From Anaerolineales bacterium (GTDB taxonomy: Bacteria > Chloroflexota > Anaerolineae > 4572-78 > NAK82), in assembly GCA_024643945.1 (NCBI GenBank), contig JAHELX010000094.1:1-13810 (forward strand): a stretch of DNA of 13,810 bases, given 5' to 3'. Below, piece after piece: positions 2 to 13,810 of this stretch. A model generated the notes under the pieces. The model was not told the DNA's origin. It ran no database searches and saw only the letters and a program-made list of their open reading frames with translations. The translations under genes were made by a program, and so were the position numbers. Every line of letters starts with the position of its first letter. The stretch's first letter is position 1.

Positions 2-739
2 CGACCAGAAGCGCTCAGCAACGTTCCGACACACTACTGCCCAGGCTGCACACATGGTCTCATCCACAAGCTCATCGGCGAGGTGATTGACGAACTCGGC
101 ATCCGTGAGCGTACCATCGCCGTAGCACCGGTGGGATGCTCTGTGTTGCTCTACAATTACTTCGAGCTGGATAGTGCCGAGGCTGCTCATGGACGTGCGC
201 CGGCTATGGCCACCGGGCTCAAACGGGTGCAACCTGATAAGGTTGTCTTCACCTATCAGGGAGATGGTGACCTGGCTTCTATCGGCATGGCTGAGATTGT
301 ATGGGCTGCCACGCGCGGCGAGAACATCACCGTCTTCTTCATCAACAACGCCATCTATGGGATGACCGGCGGGCAGATGGCACCCACCAGCCTCCCAGGT
401 CAGGTGACTGGCTCCTCGCCGACAGGAAGGGACGTGGAGATGACCGGTATGCCCATACGCATGGCCGAAATGCTGGCTGGCCTGCCCGGCGCTTCTTACG
501 TGGTGCGTCGCTCTGTTTACGATATTCGCACCATCAAAGACGCCAAGAAGGCCATCCGCACTGCGTTTCGGGTGCAAATAGCCGGCGCCGGGTTCTCGAT
601 GATCGAGTTCCTGTCCTCCTGCCCCACCAATTGGGGACTGGCGCCTTATCAAGCCCTTGACTGGATCAAAGAGAATATGGTACCTTACTATCCGCTGGGC
701 GATTATAAGGTGGCAGATATTGTTAAAGACCTGAAATAG
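2..739 (+). CDS. 2-oxoacid:ferredoxin oxidoreductase, beta (TPP-binding) subunit, 5'-truncated by window edge
   Basis: The reading frame is open from position 2, so the start lies outside the window; 245 residues are visible. This subunit binds thiamine pyrophosphate and an Fe-S cluster and, with alpha and gamma subunits, oxidatively decarboxylates 2-oxoacids to acyl-CoA while reducing ferredoxin in the cytoplasm. Seen: a CPGC-THG segment at visible residues 13-19, a further Cys in APVGCS, the TPP/Mg signature GDGD at about residues 87-90 followed by FINN at 113-116, then IYGMTGGQ. These match the VOR/KOR type (2-oxoisovalerate or 2-oxoglutarate). The gamma subunit gene follows at 797, so this is the end of an operon whose alpha subunit should lie upstream. 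The substrate cannot be decided from this fragment. The stop codon TAG lies inside the hairpin that follows. Confidence 0.93.
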
Positions 740-778
740 AGATTAGAGATTGGAGATAAGTCCAATCTCTAATCTCTA
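737..778. repeat. 18-bp perfect inverted repeat between beta and gamma subunit genes
   Basis: Positions 737-754 pair without mismatch with 761-778 around a 6-base loop (GATAAG). Both arms are built from short GAGATTAGAGATTGGA-type units. The left arm includes the TAG stop of the beta subunit, and the right arm ends about 9 bases before the gamma subunit Shine-Dalgarno sequence. There is no long T-run directly after it, so it looks more like an intercistronic RNA hairpin or an interspersed repeat than a classic terminator. Confidence 0.85.
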
Positions 779-796
779 ATCTTGTTGGAGGGAATG

Positions 797-1345
797 ATGC
801 AAGAAGAGATTATTATCTCTGGTTTTGGTGGTCAAGGGGCTCTCTTCGCCGGGATGGTTTTGGCCTATGCCGGCATGGACAATGGTAAAAACGTCACATG
901 GATTCCCAGCTACGGGCCGGAGATGCGTGGGGGAACAGCCTACGTGACTGTCATCATCGGCGATGAGGAGGTTGGCTCCCCCGTCATCCGGCGTCCCAGC
1001 TCAGCGATCGTGCTGAATAACCCCTCGATGGAAAAATATGAGCCATTGGTCAAAGAGAAAGGGGTGTTAGTGTATAACAGTTCGCTCATCTCAGGTACAC
1101 CGTCCCGAACTGACATTCGTTATATCGCTGTCCCTGCAAGTGACGTTGCTGCTGAGTTGGGAAATACCAAGATGGCAAATATGGTAGTGTTGGGTGCTTT
1201 GGTGGCGGCGACTAATGTATTGCCGCTAGAAGCCGTAGTCAAAGCCCTGCGCGATCATTTACCTGAAAGCAAGCACGCAATGCTGAAGCCCAATGAACAG
1301 GCCCTCCGGCGCGGGGCAGAACTCGCCGAGCCAGTCCTGGCTTGA
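797..1345 (+). CDS. 2-oxoacid:ferredoxin oxidoreductase, gamma subunit
   Basis: A 182-residue protein of the pyruvate/ketoisovalerate oxidoreductase catalytic gamma family. It partners the beta subunit just upstream in the ferredoxin-reducing complex. Seen: N-terminal IIISGFGGQGALFAG, the glycine-rich opening typical of the family, then SYGPEMRGGTAYV and an SPVI segment, followed by a Rossmann-like C-terminal half with AVPASD and MVVLGAL. Length is normal for the family (about 180-190). Start choice: GGAGGG lies at 787-792. ATG at 797 gives 4-5 bases of spacing, ATG at 794 gives only 1-2, and a TTG at 782 lies upstream of the ribosome site, so 797 is preferred. The 57-base gap to the beta gene, filled by a hairpin, suggests one transcript whose subunit ratio may be tuned by the RNA structure. 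KorC/VorC-like; exact substrate unresolved. Confidence 0.93.
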   Translation: MQEEIIISGFGGQGALFAGMVLAYAGMDNGKNVTWIPSYGPEMRGGTAYVTVIIGDEEVGSPVIRRPSSAIVLNNPSMEKYEPLVKEKGVLVYNSSLISGTPSRTDIRYIAVPASDVAAELGNTKMANMVVLGALVAATNVLPLEAVVKALRDHLPESKHAMLKPNEQALRRGAELAEPVLA

Positions 1346-2095: not shown

Positions 2096-3232
2096 TTAGA
2101 CAATGCCCCCCAACAGAGCCAGGACCACACCACCCGCGACTACGCTCCCAAGCTGACCGGCCGTGTTAGCCCCCATGGCGTGCATCAGCAAAAAGTTCTC
2201 AAAATCGTATTCCTGCCCCAGGCGCTGCACGATGCGAGCCGACATCGGAAAGGCGCTGATGCCGGCTGCGCCGATGAGTGGATTGAACTTCTTGTGGGAG
2301 AGAACATACATCAGCTTACCGAAGAGTACACCGCCTGCCGTGTCGAGGATGAAGGCCAGCAAACCCATTCCCAGAATGAGCAAAGTATCGAGGCGGATGA
2401 AGCTGTCGCCGGCCATTGTGCTGCCGATGGTCAGGCCAAGGAAAATGGTAGTGACGTTGGCAATTTCATTTTGGGCCGACTTGCTCAATCGCTCTACCAC
2501 CCCTGACTCGCGCATCAGGTTGCCGAACATCAGCGTGGCAATCAAGGGCGAGGCAACTGGCGCCAGCAGCGAGACGATGATCGTCACCACGATCGGAAAG
2601 AGCACCCGCGTCGTCTTAGATACTTCGCGCTGAATATAGGGCATACGGACTTTACGTTCGGCATCAGTGGTCAGCAAACGCATGACTGGCGGCTGGATAA
2701 TGGGCACCAGCGACATATAGCTATAGGCCGCCACGGCGATTGGGCCCAGCAGGTGCGGCGCCAACTTGGTCGAGACGTAGATAGCCGTCGGGCCGTCTAT
2801 CGCGCCGATGATGCCAATGGACGCCGATTCGTTCAGATCGAAGCCTAGAGCCAGTGCCAGCATCAGGGTGCCAAAGATGCCAAACTGGCCAGCCGCACCC
2901 AGCAGCGCCATTTTGGGATTATCCAGAAGCGGGCCAAAGTCCGTCATCGCCCCCACGCCGATGAATATAAGTAAAGGGAAAAGTTCCGTCTCGATGCCGG
3001 CTCGGTAGAGAATGCCAAGCATACCCTGCTCGCCGGTAATACCCGTGAGAGGCAGATTGGCCAGGATCGCCCCAAAACCGATGGGCAACAACAACACCGG
3101 CTCGTAATCTTTGGCAATGGCCAGGTAAATAAGTACCCCCCCGGCGATCATCATCACTACCATCTGCCACGTGAGGTGCATCGGAGCTTGTACCAGTTCC
3201 AGCAGATTTATGGAGTCCATAAGCGCTCTCAC
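2096..3232 (-). CDS. mmdB: Na+-translocating methylmalonyl-CoA decarboxylase, beta subunit (sodium channel)
   Basis: A 378-residue integral membrane protein of the OadB/GcdB/MmdB family. It decarboxylates carboxybiotin on the carrier subunit and couples this to export of Na+ across the cytoplasmic membrane. Seen: about nine hydrophobic segments; GVGAMTDFGPLL; the catalytic/ion-binding loop GAIDGPTAIY with Asp146, equivalent to the essential Asp of Klebsiella OadB; SLVPIIQPPVMR; LTIGSTMAGDSF; and the C-terminal HAMGANTAGQLGS segment. Length is usual for the family. The GTG start at 3232 overlaps the stop of the biotin carrier gene by four bases (GTGA), which implies translational coupling. An ATG four codons later (3220), preceded by GAGAG, is an alternative start. 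It is the last gene of the operon and is followed by the bidirectional terminator. Confidence 0.93.
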   Translation of the reverse strand: MRALMDSINLLELVQAPMHLTWQMVVMMIAGGVLIYLAIAKDYEPVLLLPIGFGAILANLPLTGITGEQGMLGILYRAGIETELFPLLIFIGVGAMTDFGPLLDNPKMALLGAAGQFGIFGTLMLALALGFDLNESASIGIIGAIDGPTAIYVSTKLAPHLLGPIAVAAYSYMSLVPIIQPPVMRLLTTDAERKVRMPYIQREVSKTTRVLFPIVVTIIVSLLAPVASPLIATLMFGNLMRESGVVERLSKSAQNEIANVTTIFLGLTIGSTMAGDSFIRLDTLLILGMGLLAFILDTAGGVLFGKLMYVLSHKKFNPLIGAAGISAFPMSARIVQRLGQEYDFENFLLMHAMGANTAGQLGSVVAGGVVLALLGGIV

Positions 3233-3711
3233 TCTCCCGAGGGGGACCTGTCTTCAAACGTAAACAGCACATCCCCGTGAGCTACCGCCTGTCCCTCCGT
3301 GACATTCACACTGGCAATCACACCATCACGGGGTGAACGAACGGCGTTCTTCATTTTCATCGCTTCCAACGAGCACAGTCGCTGCCGGAAGCGGACAGGG
3401 TCGCCCGGCTTGACGCTGATGTCGAGAATGTTACCGGGCATGGGCGCTTTGACCTGCTTTACCAACGGCCCGCCCGGTCCTGGCGGTGTGGGAGCTTTCT
3501 CCGGTGCCGACGTCTCTCGCACCACCGACTCCAAAGCGGACGCCGGCTCGTCGGCAGGCACCATCTCTAATGCGCCAGCCTCGATGGTCACCAGGTAAGG
3601 GCGTCCATTGACGTTGACCGTGATCGGCGACCTGCTCAAATCTCCCACCTCAACCAGATACGGTTTGCCATTGACAGTCACCTTTAACCGCCGTCTGGAA
3701 GTTGGACTCAT
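3229..3711 (-). CDS. mmdC: Biotin carboxyl carrier subunit of the decarboxylase
   Basis: A 160-residue biotin carrier. The C-terminal domain (about 85-156) is a biotinyl/lipoyl fold with APMPGNILDI and the biotinylation motif EAMKM, in which Lys119 would carry biotin. It moves the carboxyl group from the carboxyltransferase to the membrane beta subunit. A Pro/Ala-rich linker (about 52-84, containing PTPPGPGGP) gives it reach, as in other decarboxylase carriers. Odd: the N-terminus holds two copies of one short motif, VTVNGKPYLVEVGD (11-24) and VNVNGRPYLVTIEAG (32-46); most carriers have one such strand pair. AAAGGAGAGG ending about 6 bases before the ATG supports the start. A long hairpin lies between it and the upstream gamma gene, and its stop overlaps the beta subunit start. 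Confidence 0.93.
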   Translation of the reverse strand: MSPTSRRRLKVTVNGKPYLVEVGDLSRSPITVNVNGRPYLVTIEAGALEMVPADEPASALESVVRETSAPEKAPTPPGPGGPLVKQVKAPMPGNILDISVKPGDPVRFRQRLCSLEAMKMKNAVRSPRDGVIASVNVTEGQAVAHGDVLFTFEDRSPSGE

Positions 3712-3726
3712 GGCTATCCTCTCCTT

Positions 3727-3778
3727 TAACTACTCAGGCTGGGCCGGGGGGTTGCACCTGGCCCAGCCTGAGTAGTTA
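3727..3778. repeat. 19-bp inverted repeat between gamma and biotin carrier genes
   Basis: Positions 3727-3745 pair perfectly with 3760-3778 around a 14-base loop containing a G-run. On the transcribed (minus) strand one arm begins at the TAA stop of the gamma subunit gene (3776-3778), and the other ends directly before the AAAGGAGAGG ribosome site of the biotin carrier gene. No U-run follows, so it is probably an intercistronic stability or translation-control hairpin rather than a terminator. Confidence 0.82.
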
Positions 3779-4114
3779 CCCTCTCCTTTGAAAATGCCGC
3801 CGAATGTGGCCCACTGTCCACCACGGCCCGTGTCCAGCCTCGAGCGTGGTTCCCAGTCCGCTCCGATGGAGGTCCAGCAAACGCAGATGAGCCAGCGCGA
3901 CGGCAATGGCCGCGACGACTTCTTCCTCCTCTGTGTCCCGCGCTAGCGTGCTGACCACCCGCGTCTCTTCCGTCTCACGCACGTCGGGAACCAACCGGCG
4001 CGTCCGGAAGATGTATTCTAGCAGAATCATCGCCAGGATGAGTAGCCCTAGCGCCGCAAAAGTGAGCCCCAGGCCCATCCCACTCAAACTCAGCCCTTGC
4101 ATAATTATGTTCAC
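3776..4114 (-). CDS. mmdD: OadG/MmdD-like small membrane subunit of the sodium-pump decarboxylase
   Basis: A 112-residue protein of the sodium-pump decarboxylase gamma/delta family, which anchors and stabilises the complex at the membrane. Seen: one N-terminal transmembrane segment (about 11-33, GMGLGLTFAALGLLILAMIL), a basic stop-transfer (RTRR), an acidic linker, then EEEEVVAAIAVALAHL (62-77), the conserved helix of this family, and a short tail with GPWWTVGHIRRH. The start is a GTG at 4114 with GAGGTG just upstream; an ATG four codons later is an alternative. The gene lies between mmdA and the biotin carrier, as in Propionigenium-type mmdADCB operons. Odd: its last codons encode FQRRG using AAAGGAGAGGG, the same sequence as the ribosome site of the next gene. 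Confidence 0.87.
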   Translation of the reverse strand: MNIIMQGLSLSGMGLGLTFAALGLLILAMILLEYIFRTRRLVPDVRETEETRVVSTLARDTEEEEVVAAIAVALAHLRLLDLHRSGLGTTLEAGHGPWWTVGHIRRHFQRRG

Positions 4115-4127
4115 AGTGCACCTCGCT

Positions 4128-4169
4128 CGTCCCGCCTGCGCGGGGCTTCGTCCCGCCTACGCGGGGCTT
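4128..4169. repeat. Two tandem 21-bp units with internal CCCGC/GCGGG dyad
   Basis: Units 4128-4148 and 4149-4169 differ at one base (G or A in CCTGC/CCTAC), and a four-base start of a third copy follows at 4170-4173. Each unit can fold as CCCGC-4 bases-GCGGG. They fill most of the gap between mmdA and the gamma subunit gene. The first 14 bases of unit one recur, inverted, at 11750-11763, so this is probably an interspersed genomic repeat. Two copies without spacers do not make a CRISPR array. Confidence 0.8.
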
Positions 4170-4178
4170 CGTCTCTCA

Positions 4179-5822
4179 TTACAGTGGAATATTCCCGTGC
4201 TTCTTGGGCGGGAGCGTCACCTGCTTGTTGTGCAGCAGTTCCAGGGCGGCGATAAGACGCGGACGCGTTTCGGCCGGAACGAGAATATCGTCAATGTGAC
4301 CACTGGCGGCGACTCGGTAGGGCTTTGAGAACTTCTCCTGGAACTCGGCCACCAGGCGTGCACGCGCCCGGCGGGCATCGGAATCCTGCATCTCTTTGAG
4401 TTGTTTGCGGTAGAGAATATTGATGGCTCCTTCGGCTCCCATCACGGCCAGCTCGGCTGTAGGCCAGGCGAAGACAAAATCGGTGCGAATGTATTTGCTG
4501 CTCATCACGATGTAAGCCCCACCATAAGCTTTGCGGGTGACGACACACAGCTTTGGCACCGTTGCCTCGGAATAGGCGTAAACGATTTTTGCCCCATGCC
4601 GGATGATCCCGCCGTGTTCCTGGGACAGGCCGGGCAAGAAGCCCGGCGAGTCGACGAAAGTGATGATCGGGATGTTGAATGCATCGCAGAAACGAATGAA
4701 GCGAGCAATTTTATCGGAGGCGTCAATATCTATGACGCCGGCCAGAATCATCGGCTGCTGAGCGACCACGCCCACTGTCTGTCCATGCAGCCGGGCAAAG
4801 CCGACGATAGCATTTTGGGCGAAATACTCGTGTACCTCAAAAAAACTATTCTGGTCAAAGATCCTGCGGATGATCGTCTTCATATTGTAGCCTTCACTGG
4901 GATCGGTGGGCACAAGAGTGTTTAGCTCCAGGTCCATGCGCCACGGGTCGTCGGTCGGTTCGACGGCGGGAGGTGGCTCAGCGTTGTTTGACGGCAGATA
5001 GCTGAGAAGGATACGGGTCAGCTCCAGTGCATGGTCCTCGTCGTCGGCGGCGAAATGGGCCACACCACTGGCAGTGCTGTGCGTCATTGCGCCCCCCAGT
5101 GTCTCCACATCCACTTCTTCTTGTGTCACAGTCTTGATGACCTCCGGACCGGTGATGAACATGTGGCTCGTCCCTTTGGTCATAATCACAAAATCGGTAA
5201 GACCGGGGGAATAAACCGATCCACCAGCACACGGACCCAGCATCACACTGATTTGGGGGACGACCCCGCTGGCCTGGGTGTTACGCCAGAAAAGTTCGGC
5301 GTAGGCTGCCAGGCTATACACCCCCTCTTGAATGCGCGCCCCCACCGAGTCGTTGAGTCCGATGACCGGCACTCCCGATTCCAGCGCCAGGTCCATCACT
5401 TTGGCCACCTTCTGCCCCTGTACTTCAGAAAAGGAGCCGCCCAACACCGTGAAATCCTGGGCATACACACACACCGCTCGCCCGTTGATCTTGCCAAATC
5501 CGGTCACTACGCTGTCGCCCGGGTAGCATTTCTTATCCATGCCAAAGTCTCTGTGGCGGTGGGTTATGTAGGCATCTATCTCTTGAAAGCTTCCCTCGTC
5601 CAGCAGACGGGTGATGCGCTCGCGGGCGGTGAGCTTGCCCTTGGCATGCTGGGTTTCGATCCGCTTCGGGCCGCCGCCTTGTTTGATCTGCTCTCGTTGT
5701 TCTTTCAGCTCTGCGATCAAGGCCGCATGCCCATCAGGACCCTGGGAATTCTCCGCACCCTTCGCATATTCCTCGGAACTACCTGCGTTCTCTATCGGCT
5801 GGGCATTCGCGTCTGACTCCAT
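4179..5822 (-). CDS. mmdA: Methylmalonyl-CoA decarboxylase alpha subunit (acyl-CoA carboxyltransferase)
   Basis: A 547-residue carboxyltransferase of the PCC-beta/MmdA family. It moves the carboxyl group of (S)-methylmalonyl-CoA to biotin on the carrier subunit, giving propionyl-CoA. Seen: N-terminal crotonase-like half with AKGKLTARERI, QDFTVLGGSFSE (ending near 133) and SVGARIQEGV (159-168); C-terminal half with FVDSPGFLPG (389-398), HGGIIRHGAK, KAYGGAYIVM (431-440) and AVMGAEGA (459-466), which form the CoA sites and oxyanion glycines. The residue after GGAY is Ile, not the Asp of many propionyl-CoA carboxylases. An acidic, Gln-rich extension of about 45 residues precedes the fold. AGGAGG at 5831-5836, 8 bases upstream, supports ATG 5822; an in-frame ATG at 5870 was passed over. 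The downstream membrane subunits argue for a decarboxylase rather than a carboxylase. Confidence 0.93.
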   Translation of the reverse strand: MESDANAQPIENAGSSEEYAKGAENSQGPDGHAALIAELKEQREQIKQGGGPKRIETQHAKGKLTARERITRLLDEGSFQEIDAYITHRHRDFGMDKKCYPGDSVVTGFGKINGRAVCVYAQDFTVLGGSFSEVQGQKVAKVMDLALESGVPVIGLNDSVGARIQEGVYSLAAYAELFWRNTQASGVVPQISVMLGPCAGGSVYSPGLTDFVIMTKGTSHMFITGPEVIKTVTQEEVDVETLGGAMTHSTASGVAHFAADDEDHALELTRILLSYLPSNNAEPPPAVEPTDDPWRMDLELNTLVPTDPSEGYNMKTIIRRIFDQNSFFEVHEYFAQNAIVGFARLHGQTVGVVAQQPMILAGVIDIDASDKIARFIRFCDAFNIPIITFVDSPGFLPGLSQEHGGIIRHGAKIVYAYSEATVPKLCVVTRKAYGGAYIVMSSKYIRTDFVFAWPTAELAVMGAEGAINILYRKQLKEMQDSDARRARARLVAEFQEKFSKPYRVAASGHIDDILVPAETRPRLIAALELLHNKQVTLPPKKHGNIPL

Positions 5823-5919
5823 AGACCTTTCCTCCTGGCAAGTCGTGGGTGAATTTGAAACTAAGCACACCGCAAAATGTACAGGTTTCTATCACGAACC
5901 GATGATTTTTCCCCTTTCT

Positions 5920-9832: not shown

Positions 9833-11548
9833 ATGAACGCAATACTTGTCTTGATATTGAGTGCCGTGGGCATCGCTGTCGGGTACGGCCTTTATGCCCG
9901 GATCATTGACAAAACTATCGTCCAGCCCAATCCCGACAAAAAAACGCCTGCCACGATGTATATGGACGGTGTGGACTTCACACCTGCCAAGGGAAGCGTG
10001 CTCTTCGGCTACCAGTTCAAGTCTATCGCCGCGCTGGGCCCTATCACCGGCCCCATCGTTGCGGTACAGTGGGGCTGGCTGCCAGCGCTTTTATGGATCC
10101 TCTTGGGTGTCTTCTTCATCGGCTGGGTGCAAGACTACGGCGCCATGATCATGGGTGTGCGTCGCGAGGGAGACACCATGGGCGCACTCAGTTACAAACT
10201 CATCTCGCCCCGCGCCCGCAACATCCTCATGATCTTCATCTACTTCTACCTGCTGCTGATTATGGGCGCGTTTGGCAACCTGGTAGGCAAGAACTTGATG
10301 GCCAAGCCCGAGGTACCCTTCGGCATGATTGCTGTCGTTCTGATGGGTGTGCTGGCCGGCCAGATGACCTATAAGTGGAAGCAGGACATCATCCTGACCA
10401 CCATCGTCACTGTCGTGTTTACCTTCGTAGGCATCTGGATAAGCACACTGCCGTTTATGACTAACCTCTTCTCAGGTATCTACGGCCTCCCCGATTCTCC
10501 GAAAATCCTTCTAGGCAACACACAGGCTCAGGTCATCGGCACCTTGCTGGTGGTCATCTTCTGCTACCTGGGCGCGGTGCTGCCCATCTGGTCTTTCGCT
10601 CAGCCCGTCAACTATATCTCCTTCTGGATCGTCTCGCTGGGGATGCTGGGTGGTGTGATCGGCCTGCTGATCTGGCGTCCAGGAATGGGTGACTTCCCTG
10701 CCTTTACCCGGTTCACCATCCCCGCCGGACCATTGTGGCCCATGCTCTTCGTCACCATCGCCTGCGGGGCTATCTCCGGCTGGCACAGCCTGGTTTCCAG
10801 CTCCGGCACAGCCCGCCAGTTGGAGAAGGAGACAGATGCTTTACCGGTTGGCGGCGGTGCCATGTTCATGGAAGCGGGATTCGCGGTTATGGCCTTCCTG
10901 ACCGCCACTGTCGCCTTCGGCGGCTTGAGTGGTTACCAGGAGACACTGGGAGCCTCGGCCGCCCTGGGTGTTTTCGCCAATGGGTTGGCCAACTTCCTGG
11001 ACTACATCGCCATCCCCCACAGCTTCGGCGTGGCCTACGGCTCCGTCTTCCTGACCATTATGGCGCTGACCATCATGCAACTAGTAGTGCGCTTCATGCG
11101 CGTGGCCAGCGCCGAGCTGGTGGGTGGCGCGGTGCCAGCGATGAAGAACATCCACGTCGGCAGCATCGTCGCATTGCTTTTGACGCTGCTCTTCGTCTGG
11201 ATCATCCCCTGGCTGACCATCTGGCTCGCCTTCGGCGCTTCAAACCAACTGATGGCCGGTCTGGCCCTGCTGCTGATCTCGCTATGGCTGATGTCGGAGG
11301 GTAGAAGACACAATTGGGCGCTCTATCCCGCGATCTTTATGATCATCACCACCATCGCGGCGTTGCTCTGGGTCGCCTATTCGAATCTTCTCGTCAGCCT
11401 GCCGCAGGCTGCCACTGCTCAGGCCGCGCTTGCCGCTATCCTCGTTGGTGTCATCTGTCTGGTACTGGTGGTGGCAGCGGTGATCCTGATTGCGGATGGC
11501 TGGCAGGCCATCCAGAAAGCCAGGAAGGTGAAGCCGGCTGAGGCCTGA
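9833..11548 (+). CDS. cstA: CstA-family carbon starvation transporter (pyruvate/peptide uptake)
   Basis: A 571-residue polytopic membrane protein of the CstA/BtsT family, which in characterised members imports pyruvate or peptides with cations. Seen: about 15 hydrophobic segments; the family signature FKSIAALGPITGP (62-74) followed by QWGWLPALLWILLG; VQDYGAMIMGVRR; and GWHSLVSSSGTARQL (316-330). It is shorter than Escherichia coli CstA and BtsT (about 700 residues), in line with the shorter branch of the family. AAAGGAGG (9815-9822) lies 10 bases before the ATG. It appears to be transcribed alone from the promoter at 9578, through a structured leader that may attenuate transcription. The exact substrate is not shown by sequence. 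Confidence 0.93.
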   Translation: MNAILVLILSAVGIAVGYGLYARIIDKTIVQPNPDKKTPATMYMDGVDFTPAKGSVLFGYQFKSIAALGPITGPIVAVQWGWLPALLWILLGVFFIGWVQDYGAMIMGVRREGDTMGALSYKLISPRARNILMIFIYFYLLLIMGAFGNLVGKNLMAKPEVPFGMIAVVLMGVLAGQMTYKWKQDIILTTIVTVVFTFVGIWISTLPFMTNLFSGIYGLPDSPKILLGNTQAQVIGTLLVVIFCYLGAVLPIWSFAQPVNYISFWIVSLGMLGGVIGLLIWRPGMGDFPAFTRFTIPAGPLWPMLFVTIACGAISGWHSLVSSSGTARQLEKETDALPVGGGAMFMEAGFAVMAFLTATVAFGGLSGYQETLGASAALGVFANGLANFLDYIAIPHSFGVAYGSVFLTIMALTIMQLVVRFMRVASAELVGGAVPAMKNIHVGSIVALLLTLLFVWIIPWLTIWLAFGASNQLMAGLALLLISLWLMSEGRRHNWALYPAIFMIITTIAALLWVAYSNLLVSLPQAATAQAALAAILVGVICLVLVVAAVILIADGWQAIQKARKVKPAEA

Positions 11549-11834: not shown

Positions 11835-12206
11835 ATGTCCCACGTTTCCGTCCAGGTTATCGCCCCGGTACTGACGAACTTCTTCCACTGTATGCACTGT
11901 GAGCAAATCTTCGACCAGGCCGATATTGGCCGGCAGGTACATCAGGAAGAGCTCGATCAATATCCCGGAGATCTCAAACAAGAAACCGCTCGCCTGGCCA
12001 ACTGGCTCTCTGACCTGGCTTACCGCTATGGCGACCAGATCCACATGCGGGTGATTGACTCTCAATCGCCCGAAGGGCTTTTCAAGTCGCTGCGCTATTG
12101 GGTGCGCCAGTACCCCACCTTTATCGTGGACGGGCGCGAGAAGGTCACCGGCTGGGACCAGGGGGCACTGGAAGCAATTCTGCAAGCCCGGTTAGCGGGC
12201 AGGTAA
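11835..12206 (+). CDS. Thioredoxin-fold protein with CxxC motif
   Basis: A 123-residue protein with a thioredoxin-like pattern: strand SVQVIAPVLTNFF leading into a CMHC redox pair (Cys19, Cys22), a helical middle (about 35-65), strand QIHMRVIDSQSP, and YPTFIVDGREKVTGW with the cis-proline at 94 facing the active site. It probably acts in thiol exchange or as a redox sensor. I cannot assign it to a named subfamily. The frame is open further upstream, to 11676, but that part is Arg-rich, runs through the inverted-repeat structure, and adds nothing fold-like, so ATG 11835 was chosen; its ribosome site (GAGAG) is weak. The next gene starts at the base after its stop, which suggests a shared transcript and function with the small proteins and ATPase that follow. 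Confidence 0.8.
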   Translation: MSHVSVQVIAPVLTNFFHCMHCEQIFDQADIGRQVHQEELDQYPGDLKQETARLANWLSDLAYRYGDQIHMRVIDSQSPEGLFKSLRYWVRQYPTFIVDGREKVTGWDQGALEAILQARLAGR

Positions 12207-12515
12207 GTGTCTATCAAGCTATCTCGCACGCTCCAGCGACTTGAATTTGGCATTGAAAAGGCGCTTCAAATCCTACGCGACGTCATCTATGGGATGACTG
12301 TCTACGATTGGGTACACGAGCTGAACAAAGCTCGGAACGAGGAGGAGCGTCTTTTTACTGTTATTGTTTATGGTGACCTGTTGGGAATCCCCATTCTGCC
12401 GCCATATTATACGTTGCGCCTGCTTCCCTTTATGGTCCCGACCTTGGAAAACTGGCGGCGCAGTATGCTGCGCGAGAGAGACCTGACCGATCTTATCGAT
12501 CAAGAGATTGGCTGA
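12207..12515 (+). CDS. Small conserved-motif protein, first of two tandem paralogs, function unknown
   Basis: A 102-residue protein of no family I recognise. It begins with a GTG directly after the thioredoxin-like stop, with GGGCAGG just upstream. It is mostly helical in appearance: an amphipathic N-terminal helix (about 5-30), IYGM at 27-30, a charged middle, then GDLLGIPILPPYY (56-68), LRLLP (70-74), a Trp at 83 and MLRERDLTD (87-95). Aligned without gaps to the product of the gene at 12752, about 41 of 73 positions are identical. The hydrophobic, Pro/Tyr-rich centre is too short and broken for a clear membrane helix. Its position between a thioredoxin-fold gene and an ArsA-type ATPase suggests a partner or substrate of that ATPase; this is inference. 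Confidence 0.8.
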   Translation: MSIKLSRTLQRLEFGIEKALQILRDVIYGMTVYDWVHELNKARNEEERLFTVIVYGDLLGIPILPPYYTLRLLPFMVPTLENWRRSMLRERDLTDLIDQEIG

Positions 12516-12640
12516 TCGTAACTTGCTATTATCCGATTTTTGGATACACTTAATGGGCCGCAATTTGCTCCCGCTGAATCTAGTACCCCATCACAGGGAT
12601 TATGATATGATACAGATTACGCCCATGAGGCCGAATCTAA

Positions 12641-12663
12641 CTTATCAAAATCACTTTGATAGG
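12641..12663. promoter_or_regulatory. Inverted repeat, possible operator or hairpin
   Basis: CTTATCAAA (12641-12649) pairs with TTTGATAGG (12655-12663) around a five-base loop, with one G-T pair. It lies in the AT-rich 236-base gap between the two small paralogs, downstream of two overlapping TATGAT-like hexamers (near 12601-12611) that lack a good -35. It may be an operator for a second transcript; no T-run follows. Confidence 0.4.
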
Positions 12664-12751
12664 GCACTAGTAATCCGCTACGAGTTTCCGTGACCTGGCG
12701 ATACTCTCAACTCCCCGAAGGGGACATCTAGCATCTGTGGAGGAACGTATT

Positions 12752-13027
12752 ATGTCCGAAGAAGAACGCAACATCTTGAAGAAGCTAAGCCAGTCTGCTG
12801 TCCAGTTTATCTACGGCATGGCCGGCCACGATATGACCCGCTTTGCCTTAAAGACCCGGGGCAGCATGGAGCACCTGTTCATCCTCATCACGATGGGCGA
12901 CCTGCTGGGCGTGCCTATCCTGCCACCCTACTACTCGCTACGCTTGCTGCCTTACGTCGTACCCCAGATTTCCACCTGGAAGCGACGCATGCTGCGCGAG
13001 AGAGACCTGACCGACGCCTTGGCCTAG
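12752..13027 (+). CDS. Small conserved-motif protein, second of two tandem paralogs, function unknown
   Basis: A 91-residue paralog of the preceding small protein, with a shorter, acidic start (MSEEERNILKK) and the same ungapped core: IYGM (20-23), GDLLGVPILPPYY (49-61), LRLLP (63-67), Trp76 and MLRERDLTD (80-88). A GGAGG at 12739-12743 lies 8 bases before the ATG, so this start is preferred over an in-frame GTG at 12737 that overlaps the ribosome site. The ATPase gene begins 13 bases after the stop, so the two are very likely co-transcribed and may form a complex. Odd: the last conserved 26 bases are identical in DNA to the first paralog, although the DNA just upstream has diverged at synonymous sites. 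Confidence 0.85.
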   Translation: MSEEERNILKKLSQSAVQFIYGMAGHDMTRFALKTRGSMEHLFILITMGDLLGVPILPPYYSLRLLPYVVPQISTWKRRMLRERDLTDALA

Positions 13028-13040
13028 AAGGGATAATCTC

Positions 13041-13810
13041 ATGTCACTGGCACGCATCTTCGACGAATACCCCGAACGGCGATACATCATGTTCGGCGGC
13101 AAGGGAGGCCTGGGCAAAACCACCTTCTCGGCTGCCACCGCCTATTATCTGGCCAAAACGGGCCACAAAGTGCTGGTCTTTTCTGTAGACCCCCAGGCCT
13201 CTCTCTCTGACATCTTTGAGCGGGACATCTTCGGCCAGGGAGCGGTGGAAATTATGCCCAATCTCTACGCTCAGGAGATTGATGCCGACCGGCACATCAA
13301 GGAATACCAGGACGAAATCCGTCAAAAAATCTTCGATATGTACGGCCTGGATGAAATCCCTGAAGAGATCGAGAGCTACATTCAGGCGGCAGCGGCCGAA
13401 CCGGCGATGGAGGAGAGCGCCATCTTTGATCAGGTGGTAGATATCGTCGTCAGCGCCGAATATGACTACTACATCTACGACCTGGTGCCTCTCGGCCATG
13501 CGCTGTATTACCTGAGCATGGCCAGCGTGTATGATGAGTGGATTGGCAAAATCACCAAGCTGCGCCAGGAGATGGAGGAATACAGCCAAGTTGCTTCGCT
13601 CCTCAAGCGCGAAGAAGAGACTGAAGAGGATATGATCCTCAAAGAGCTGATGGAAATCAAATACCGCATCAACACCTCCTCCAGCATTTTGACCGATAAA
13701 GAAAAGACAGCCTTCTTCTTCGTCATCATCCCCGAAGAGATGGCCCTACTCGACACTCAAAAGGCGGCCGGTCTCTTTGCCAAATACCAGGTGCCCCTCA
13801 GCGGCTATGT
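13041..13810 (+). CDS. ArsA/Get3-family ATPase, 3'-truncated by window edge
   Basis: The first 256 residues are visible; the gene runs off the right edge. It is a P-loop ATPase of the SIMIBI class, ArsA/TRC40 family. Seen: deviant Walker A GGKGGLGKTT (19-28) with the signature Lys21, FSVDPQASLSDIF (47-59, switch I region), and DLVPLGHALYYL (147-158) where most ArsA/Get3 members have DTAPTGHTLR (switch II). A charged, helical region follows (about 170-215), then VIIPEEMALLDTQKAAGLF, typical of the family's C-terminal half. Members act in arsenite export or in targeting tail-anchored membrane proteins. No arsB, arsC or arsR is visible, so arsenite export is not supported here. AAGGGA about 7-8 bases upstream supports the ATG. 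Confidence 0.9.
   Translation, partial: MSLARIFDEYPERRYIMFGGKGGLGKTTFSAATAYYLAKTGHKVLVFSVDPQASLSDIFERDIFGQGAVEIMPNLYAQEIDADRHIKEYQDEIRQKIFDMYGLDEIPEEIESYIQAAAAEPAMEESAIFDQVVDIVVSAEYDYYIYDLVPLGHALYYLSMASVYDEWIGKITKLRQEMEEYSQVASLLKREEETEEDMILKELMEIKYRINTSSSILTDKEKTAFFFVIIPEEMALLDTQKAAGLFAKYQVPLSGY

What the first reader, a model, noticed from the sequence alone, without database searches (positions are those of the whole stretch)
11835..13810. Uncharacterised gene set: thioredoxin-fold protein, two small paralogs and an ArsA-like ATPase
Four adjacent plus-strand genes, with 0, 236 and 13 base gaps, combine a CxxC thioredoxin-fold protein, two small proteins sharing a strong motif (GDLLG-PILPPYY, LRLLP, MLRERDLTD) that I cannot place in any family, and an ArsA/Get3-type ATPase. 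No arsenic genes accompany them. ArsA-family dimers shuttle clients using ATP; the small proteins could be clients, adaptors or subunits, and the thioredoxin-like protein could set the redox state. The role is inference; the arrangement and shared motif are seen.
Basis: partly seen in the sequence, partly recalled or inferred. Interest (0 to 1): 0.75.

Follow-up and report, generated by a model that had tools for sequence, protein, structure and literature searches.

The report
CstA transporter module with paired ATPases
These genes belong to a CstA-type nutrient uptake system whose transporter gene sits just upstream, with small partner proteins, an ArsA-type ATPase and a thioredoxin-like protein that some relatives appear to make with selenium; the core grouping was described in 2010, while the paired active and altered ATPases and the selenium-linked redox partner look new.

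Summary
The set is a CstA-CstX-ArsA operon, a grouping described in 2010 (PMC2963123). The small proteins are CstX-like (PF25952 on listed homologues; sub-cut-off match to NCBIfam 'cory-CC-star'). Relatives show that the window cuts the operon short; the full form is CstA, Trx-like, CstX1, CstX2, ArsA1, ArsA2.

New here: (1) In 114 two-ArsA loci, ArsA1 keeps the catalytic Asp in 114 and ArsA2 has Asn in 113 (the other ORF lacks that part); in Get3 this change (D57N) stops hydrolysis and traps ATP. All 25 true single-ArsA loci keep Asp. (2) The Trx-like protein lies beside cstA, and in 21 of 67 copies in relatives an in-frame UGA stands at the first Cys of CxxC: a probable undescribed selenoprotein family (the window copy has Cys). 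(3) In 198 Actinomycetota genomes CstX and the E. coli-type partner YbdD sit beside different CstA types, never the same gene.

Best reading: a CstA transporter driven or gated by an ArsA1/ArsA2 dimer tethered through CstX, with a dedicated thiol/selenol partner. Parts are well supported; mechanism is inference.

The parts
9833..11548 (+). CstA-family transporter, short type (571 aa)
   Evidence: PF02554 E 1.5e-112
11835..12206 (+). Thioredoxin-like protein (T)
   Evidence: AF2 model with thioredoxin fold; under 600 bp from CstA in 58 of 63 loci holding both
11889..11900 (+). CxxC motif (C-M-H-C); first Cys codon TGT at 11889 is UGA in 21 of 67 copies in relatives
12207..12515 (+). CstX1, small partner protein
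   Evidence: NF041419 E 3.7e-11, below cut-off; profile family
12752..13027 (+). CstX2, small partner protein (alternative GTG start at 12737)
   Evidence: NF041419 E 3.3e-8, below cut-off; homologues carry PF25952
13041..13810 (+). ArsA1-type ATPase, cut by the window end
   Evidence: PF02374 E 8e-59; P-loop codons 13095-13121
13188..13190 (+). Switch I catalytic Asp codon (GAC) of ArsA1; Asn in ArsA2 of relatives

Best explanation
This is a CstA-CstX-ArsA transport module. CstA is the membrane transporter (E. coli members take up pyruvate and peptides). Small helical CstX proteins tether a soluble ArsA-type dimer to CstA, as Castillo and Saier proposed. In the duplicated form, which relatives show and the window is most likely part of, the dimer is probably mixed: ArsA1 hydrolyses ATP, while ArsA2 (catalytic Asp replaced by Asn) binds ATP without hydrolysing it and serves as a latch, so that each cycle has one hydrolytic stroke that drives or opens CstA. 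CstX1 and CstX2 would contact the two unlike halves. The Trx-like protein (CxxC, or UxxC in some relatives) is a dedicated reductant for a disulfide in the complex. Shown: gene set and order, paralogue-specific active sites, UGA at the Cys position in relatives. Inferred: the mixed dimer, tethering, energising versus gating, the redox target, and a second ArsA beyond the window end.
For: CstA upstream. CstA within 6 kb of CstX in 87 and ArsA within 3 kb in 97 of 101 loci with enough flank. Forms: 89 loci with two CstX and two ArsA, 26 with one and one, of 162; 85 and 26 of 153 after removing overlapping or near-identical loci. Asp in 114 of 114 first and Asn in 113 of 114 second ArsA ORFs; 109 of 109 each after thinning; 25 of 25 true singles keep Asp. 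Asn aligns with the catalytic Asp of a Get3 (PDB 3ug6); D57N traps ATP-bound Get3 (PMC12506534 passages). ArsA1, ArsA2 and single ArsA each lie on one side of a branch. YbdD, needed for E. coli CstA uptake (PMC5847655 passages), is absent beside CstX-type CstA. T lies beside CstA, with UGA at the active Cys in 21 of 67.
Against: No biochemistry for this branch. ArsA1 also departs from the usual switch II (DLVPLGH instead of DTAPTGH), so its activity is assumed. 14 of 101 flanked loci lack CstA nearby, four of them CstX alone. 23 of 162 loci have one CstX with two ArsA, so the two-to-two match is not strict. No T in 53 of 115 loci with two or more ArsA ORFs. The CstX model is weak (pTM 0.45). 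E. coli CstA works without ArsA.
Confidence: 0.5

Rival explanations
1. ArsA does not power transport but switches it: the dimer senses ATP or energy charge and, through CstX, opens or closes an otherwise ion-driven CstA.
For: CstA relatives work without ArsA: E. coli CstA uses YbdD, and 10 short-type CstA loci of Actinomycetota show neither CstX, ArsA nor YbdD in about 5 kb of flank (L319-L328). A latch-type ArsA2 suits a switch.
Against: None decisive; sequence cannot tell gating from energising.
Confidence: 0.25
2. ArsA is a Get3-like chaperone that helps CstX or CstA into the membrane.
For: Fold family; duplicated-class CstX has a basic stretch (pattern found in 183 of 241 sequences) that resembles the RERR motif of Get2, which contacts Get3 (PMC8629386 passage).
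Against: No CxxC zinc motif in 260 ArsA ORFs; 0 of 25 single-class CstX have the basic pattern; linkage is to one transporter, not to many clients (inference).
Confidence: 0.12
3. Arsenic or metal efflux: ArsA acts as in the arsenite pump.
For: Family name only.
Against: Single-domain ArsA beside CstA; no arsenic gene seen among window ORFs (by eye); [quoted passage not shown]
Confidence: 0.03

Closest known systems
CstA-CstX-ArsA operons (Castillo and Saier 2010, PMC2963123)
   Same: CstA transporter, a small protein of about 90 aa, single-domain ArsA; two CstX and adjacent ArsA pairs were already seen in a few organisms.
   Different: What I read of it does not mention a Trx-like member next to CstA, nor that the Asp/Asn difference separates the two ArsA paralogues (it notes only that the D of the SXD motif can be replaced by N).
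CstA-YbdD (E. coli; PF04328, KCU-star NF033934)
   Same: CstA with a small partner; many partners end in Cys-Cys or, in KCU-star, Cys-Sec.
   Different: Other CstA type, no ArsA; YbdD and CstX are not homologous by profile.
cory-CC-star protein (NF041419)
   Same: Homologous CstX of the single-ArsA class, often ending in Cys-Cys (18 of 25).
   Different: Window proteins score 43 and 33 bits against a cut-off of 80 and do not end in Cys-Cys.
Get3/ArsA ATPases
   Same: P-loop with signature Lys, switch I Asp in ArsA1.
   Different: No CxxC zinc motif; ArsA2 carries the D57N-type change.
Thioredoxin-like selenoproteins (PMC13188914, Table 1)
   Same: Thioredoxin fold, Sec in a UxxC motif.
   Different: Sec members of this family match no NCBIfam or Pfam model above cut-off; no entry seen in Table 1 (section 7 part 1 of 3, and passages) is named for CstA or ArsA.

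Membership tests
CstA-CstX-ArsA system | CstA adjacent | tested here: met
   PF02554 at 9833-11548
CstA-CstX-ArsA system | Small protein homologous to the published CstX | tested here: inconclusive
   Same size and place; the published CstX sequences were not compared
CstA-CstX-ArsA system | Single-domain ArsA of about 300-340 aa | tested here: met
   Window copy is cut at 256 aa; relative L003 has 331 and 327 aa
cory-CC-star (NF041419) | Score over the curated cut-off of 80 bits | tested here: not met
   42.9 and 33.4 bits
cory-CC-star (NF041419) | C-terminal Cys-Cys | tested here: not met
   Window proteins end ..EIG and ..ALA
Get3 | P-loop and switch I Asp | tested here: met
   ArsA1
Get3 | CxxC zinc motif | tested here: not met
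   0 of 260 ArsA ORFs in relatives and window (window copy is cut before the usual place)
Get3 | Binding of tail-anchored clients | not testable with these tools
   -
Arsenite pump ArsA | Two fused ATPase domains | tested here: not met
   Single-domain ORFs of about 330 aa in relatives
Thioredoxin-like fold | Fold with CxxC at the first helix | tested here: met
   AF2 model and Foldseek, weak E-values
Selenoprotein family (T) | In-frame UGA at the Cys position in the window copy | tested here: not met
   TGT at 11889
Selenoprotein family (T) | In-frame UGA at the Cys position in relatives | tested here: met
   21 of 67 copies
Selenoprotein family (T) | tRNA-Sec in UGA genomes | tested here: inconclusive
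   54 bits or more in 15 of 20 UGA and 32 of 36 Cys genomes
YbdD/KCU-star (PF04328) | Homology of CstX to YbdD | tested here: not met
   hhalign probability under 8%, only the tail aligned

The most novel reading that the evidence does not exclude
CstA-family transporters are thiol/selenol-redox-coupled machines. The redox centre sits either on the C-terminal Cys-Cys or Cys-Sec tail of the small partner (cory-CC-star CstX, YbdD/KCU-star) or, where CstX and ArsA are duplicated and the tail is lost, on a separate thioredoxin-like protein that is a new selenoprotein family (UxxC). Its redox state sets or resets an asymmetric ArsA1/ArsA2 dimer, one half hydrolysing and one half latched, that drives CstA.
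Probability: 0.3. Interest if true: 0.82.

Novelty: new variant of a known kind. Interest (0 to 1): 0.62.

Why it matters
Why some CstA transporters are linked to an ArsA ATPase has been open since 2010. A strictly kept pair of one Asp-type and one D57N-type ArsA gives a direct biochemical test (mixed dimer, single hydrolysing site). A thioredoxin-like partner that appears to use selenocysteine in loci of three phyla says that thiol chemistry matters here, and the Cys-Cys or Cys-Sec tails of the unrelated partners YbdD and CstX point the same way.

Tried and rejected
Homology of CstX to YbdD: rejected (a first try was spoilt by two long junk ORFs). A Get2-like motif as proof of a Get pathway: kept only as a lead, since single-class CstX lacks it and a PDB sequence search with that stretch found no Get2 chain. 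Structural neighbours of CstX: none convincing (PDB, viral, sequence); no solved relative of CstA by sequence at E<=1. tRNA-Sec as a discriminating test: not discriminating. SECIS: best-hairpin scores are higher in UGA than in Cys members (8.3 versus 5.9, p 6e-4, kinship not corrected; 20 of 21 UGA members have one); a folding-energy comparison was weaker (mean z -1.07 for 21 versus -0.31 for 48). CstX loci without CstA or ArsA: no shared neighbour seen by eye in L241, L242, L248. CstX-ArsA or CstX-CstA fusions: none in 162 loci; one 214-aa ORF joins a Trx-like piece to CstX (L036), a single metagenome-assembled case.

Full report
Observation. The small proteins share 52% identity over 82 residues.

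The missed neighbour. The ORF just upstream, 9833-11548, is CstA (PF02554, E 1.5e-112). The small proteins match NCBIfam NF041419 'cory-CC-star' below its cut-off. Of 6393 homologues of small protein 2, the 120 listed carry the precomputed label PF25952; the Pfam copy that I scanned did not return that family. Castillo and Saier 2010 (PMC2963123; abstract, sections 12 and 22 and passages read) describe 26 CstA-ArsA associations, 24 with a small CstX, and propose CstX as a link that couples ArsA ATP hydrolysis to CstA. So the grouping is known. I did not compare their CstX sequences; the identity rests on size, position and partners. The window is Chloroflexota-like: close homologues include Anaerolineae, and L003 (Anaerolineales) has CstA, T, two CstX and ArsA in the same order, with ORFs of like size upstream.

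Neighbourhoods. One genome scan gave 80 loci (185 confirmed, best 80 kept). I analysed 162 loci (80 scanned, 80 longer stretches, one plasmid locus, the window). Nine overlap or nearly repeat another; two pairs are the same place (L041/L265, L058/L297). By number of CstX and ArsA ORFs: 89 have two and two; 26 one and one (one of these, L042, is a cut two-ArsA locus); 23 one and two; 6 two and one (cut by contig ends or the window end); 15 no ArsA in the stretch; 3 others. After thinning to 153 loci: 85, 26, 22, 5, 12 and 3. Of 101 loci with enough flank, 87 have CstA within 6 kb and 97 ArsA within 3 kb; 14 have no CstA near, among them four with CstX alone. In some of these a second CstX lies elsewhere in the genome. 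A single-copy example with public annotation is a Pseudochrobactrum plasmid: carbon starvation protein A, cory-CC-star protein, ArsA family ATPase.

Paired ATPases. In the first 81 loci, switch I is Asp-type in 80 of 80 first ArsA ORFs and Asn-type in 73 of 73 second ones. In the larger set with two ArsA ORFs, the first has Asp in 114 of 114 and the second Asn in 113 of 114; the exception, L286, is an ORF that begins after the motif. After thinning: 109 of 109 and 109 of 109. L288, with three ORFs by a spurious middle frame, follows the rule. Of 32 loci with one ArsA, 7 are cut two-ArsA loci, the window among them; the 25 true singles keep Asp. ArsA2 also has PTAN for PTGH in switch II; ArsA1 keeps GH but departs elsewhere there (DLVPLGH for DTAPTGH), which counts against taking its activity for granted. 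The Asn of ArsA2 aligns with the Asp of M. jannaschii Get3 (PDB 3ug6). D57 of yeast Get3 is essential for hydrolysis and D57N traps the ATP state (PMC12506534, passages; D57 also in PMC10248533, passage). In a tree of 87 thinned sequences ArsA1, ArsA2 and single ArsAs each lie on one side of a branch (SH-aLRT 99, 100, 98; quick method, long-branch warnings). Hence my reading of a mixed dimer with one working site; that the two form a dimer is inference.

Which CstA. In 198 Actinomycetota genomes 47 have CstA at E<=1e-20, which I merged into 48 genes and split by profile score into long (21, three of them fragments assigned by hand) and short (27). YbdD/Sel_put (PF04328) lies beside 15 long and 0 short; CstX beside 0 long and 15 short; 6 long and 12 short have neither within 4.5 kb on the contig, some through contig breaks (Fisher p 5e-8 and 2e-5, kinship not corrected). 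One genome has both, each beside its own CstA. Of the 85 CstX genomes that had handles I tested 80: PF04328 occurs in 1. E. coli uptake of pyruvate by CstA requires YbdD (PMC5847655, passages). So CstX with ArsA takes the place of YbdD in another CstA branch. Both partners often end in Cys-Cys: 18 of 25 single-class CstX but 0 of 241 others, and 12 of 17 YbdD. The YbdD family has a Cys-Sec form, KCU-star/DUF466 (PMC13188914, Table 1; L302 matches PF04328, and NF033934 below cut-off). CstX and YbdD are not homologous by profile.

The thioredoxin-like protein. The window copy matches no Pfam or NCBIfam family; 70 close homologues were found. The AF2 model is a thioredoxin fold with a helical insert. 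It lies under 600 bp from CstA in 58 of 63 loci that hold both. It was found in 62 of 115 loci with two or more ArsA ORFs and 0 of 26 with one CstX and one ArsA, but the profile was trained on the former. Reading TGA as Sec gave longer members. Of 73 hits I set aside 6 degenerate second copies; of 67, 46 have Cys and 21 (in 20 loci) have in-frame UGA at the first Cys of CxxC (44 and 20 after thinning). 19 are UxxC; L018 (UxxY) and L279 (UxxK) lack the second Cys. By locus titles they come from Desulfobacterota-type and Chloroflexota-type loci and from the phylum of L058 (Methylomirabilota). Upstream of the UGA, differences among the 14 sequences of that phylum fall 376, 112 and 590 on codon positions 1, 2 and 3, as expected of coding DNA. 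Hairpins downstream score higher than in Cys members (p 6e-4, kinship not corrected). tRNA-Sec: all 14 control genomes give weak hits, so I used 54 bits: 15 of 20 UGA genomes and 32 of 36 Cys genomes (at the family cut-off of 47 bits, 16 and 33). G003 (L018), a chromosome-level bin, has none and its copy lacks the second Cys, so it may be a decayed gene. The 2026 inventory (PMC13188914; section 7 part 1 of 3 and passages seen) shows no family named for CstA or ArsA, and Sec members match no NCBIfam or Pfam model above cut-off. As far as these and paper searches 84, 85 and 91 go, this is an undescribed selenoprotein family.

Mechanism. Most likely the ArsA1/ArsA2 dimer, held by CstX, drives or gates CstA, and the Trx-like protein reduces a disulfide in the complex. 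Energising and gating cannot be told apart here. CstX is modelled as a long helix and a second helix joined by the conserved LGVPILPPYY turn (pLDDT 80, pTM 0.45), with a borderline hydrophobic stretch (highest 19-residue mean 1.45 and 1.59 in the window proteins), which would suit a membrane-dipping tether. The stretch KRRMLRERD resembles the RERR motif of Get2 that contacts Get3 (PMC8629386, passage); a lead only.

Novelty. The CstA-CstX-ArsA grouping is known. Not found in what I read: the paralogue-specific Asp/Asn pair, the Trx-like selenoprotein partner, and the division of CstA types between YbdD and CstX. A paper search from 2011 on listed 15 of 103 papers, none of which holds 'CstX' or 'ArsA family ATPase'; 'cory-CC-star' occurs in 0 papers.

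Noticed in passing
L018, L021, L038, L050, L074, L075, L279-L282, L284, L285, L287, L289-L291, L293-L296: In-frame UGA at the first Cys of CxxC in the Trx-like protein of relatives, a probable undescribed selenoprotein family; became part of the finding.
   Followed up: yes
window 2096-5870, minus strand: Biotin-dependent Na+-pumping decarboxylase set (OAD_beta, biotin carrier, OAD_gamma, carboxyl transferase).
   Followed up: no
window 2-1345: 2-oxoacid:ferredoxin oxidoreductase subunits (TPP_enzyme_C and POR), so 2-oxoacids such as pyruvate are handled nearby.
   Followed up: no
L027, L051, L055, L057, L064, L069; L036:6844-7488: A second, degenerate Trx-like copy without CxxC near CstX; in L036 one ORF joins such a piece to CstX.
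   Followed up: partly
L241, L242, L248, L260: CstX genes with neither CstA nor ArsA in the stretch; in three of the four genomes a further CstX match was found.
   Followed up: partly
L319-L328: Short-type CstA genes with no CstX, ArsA or YbdD in about 5 kb of flank; their partner, if any, is unknown.
   Followed up: no
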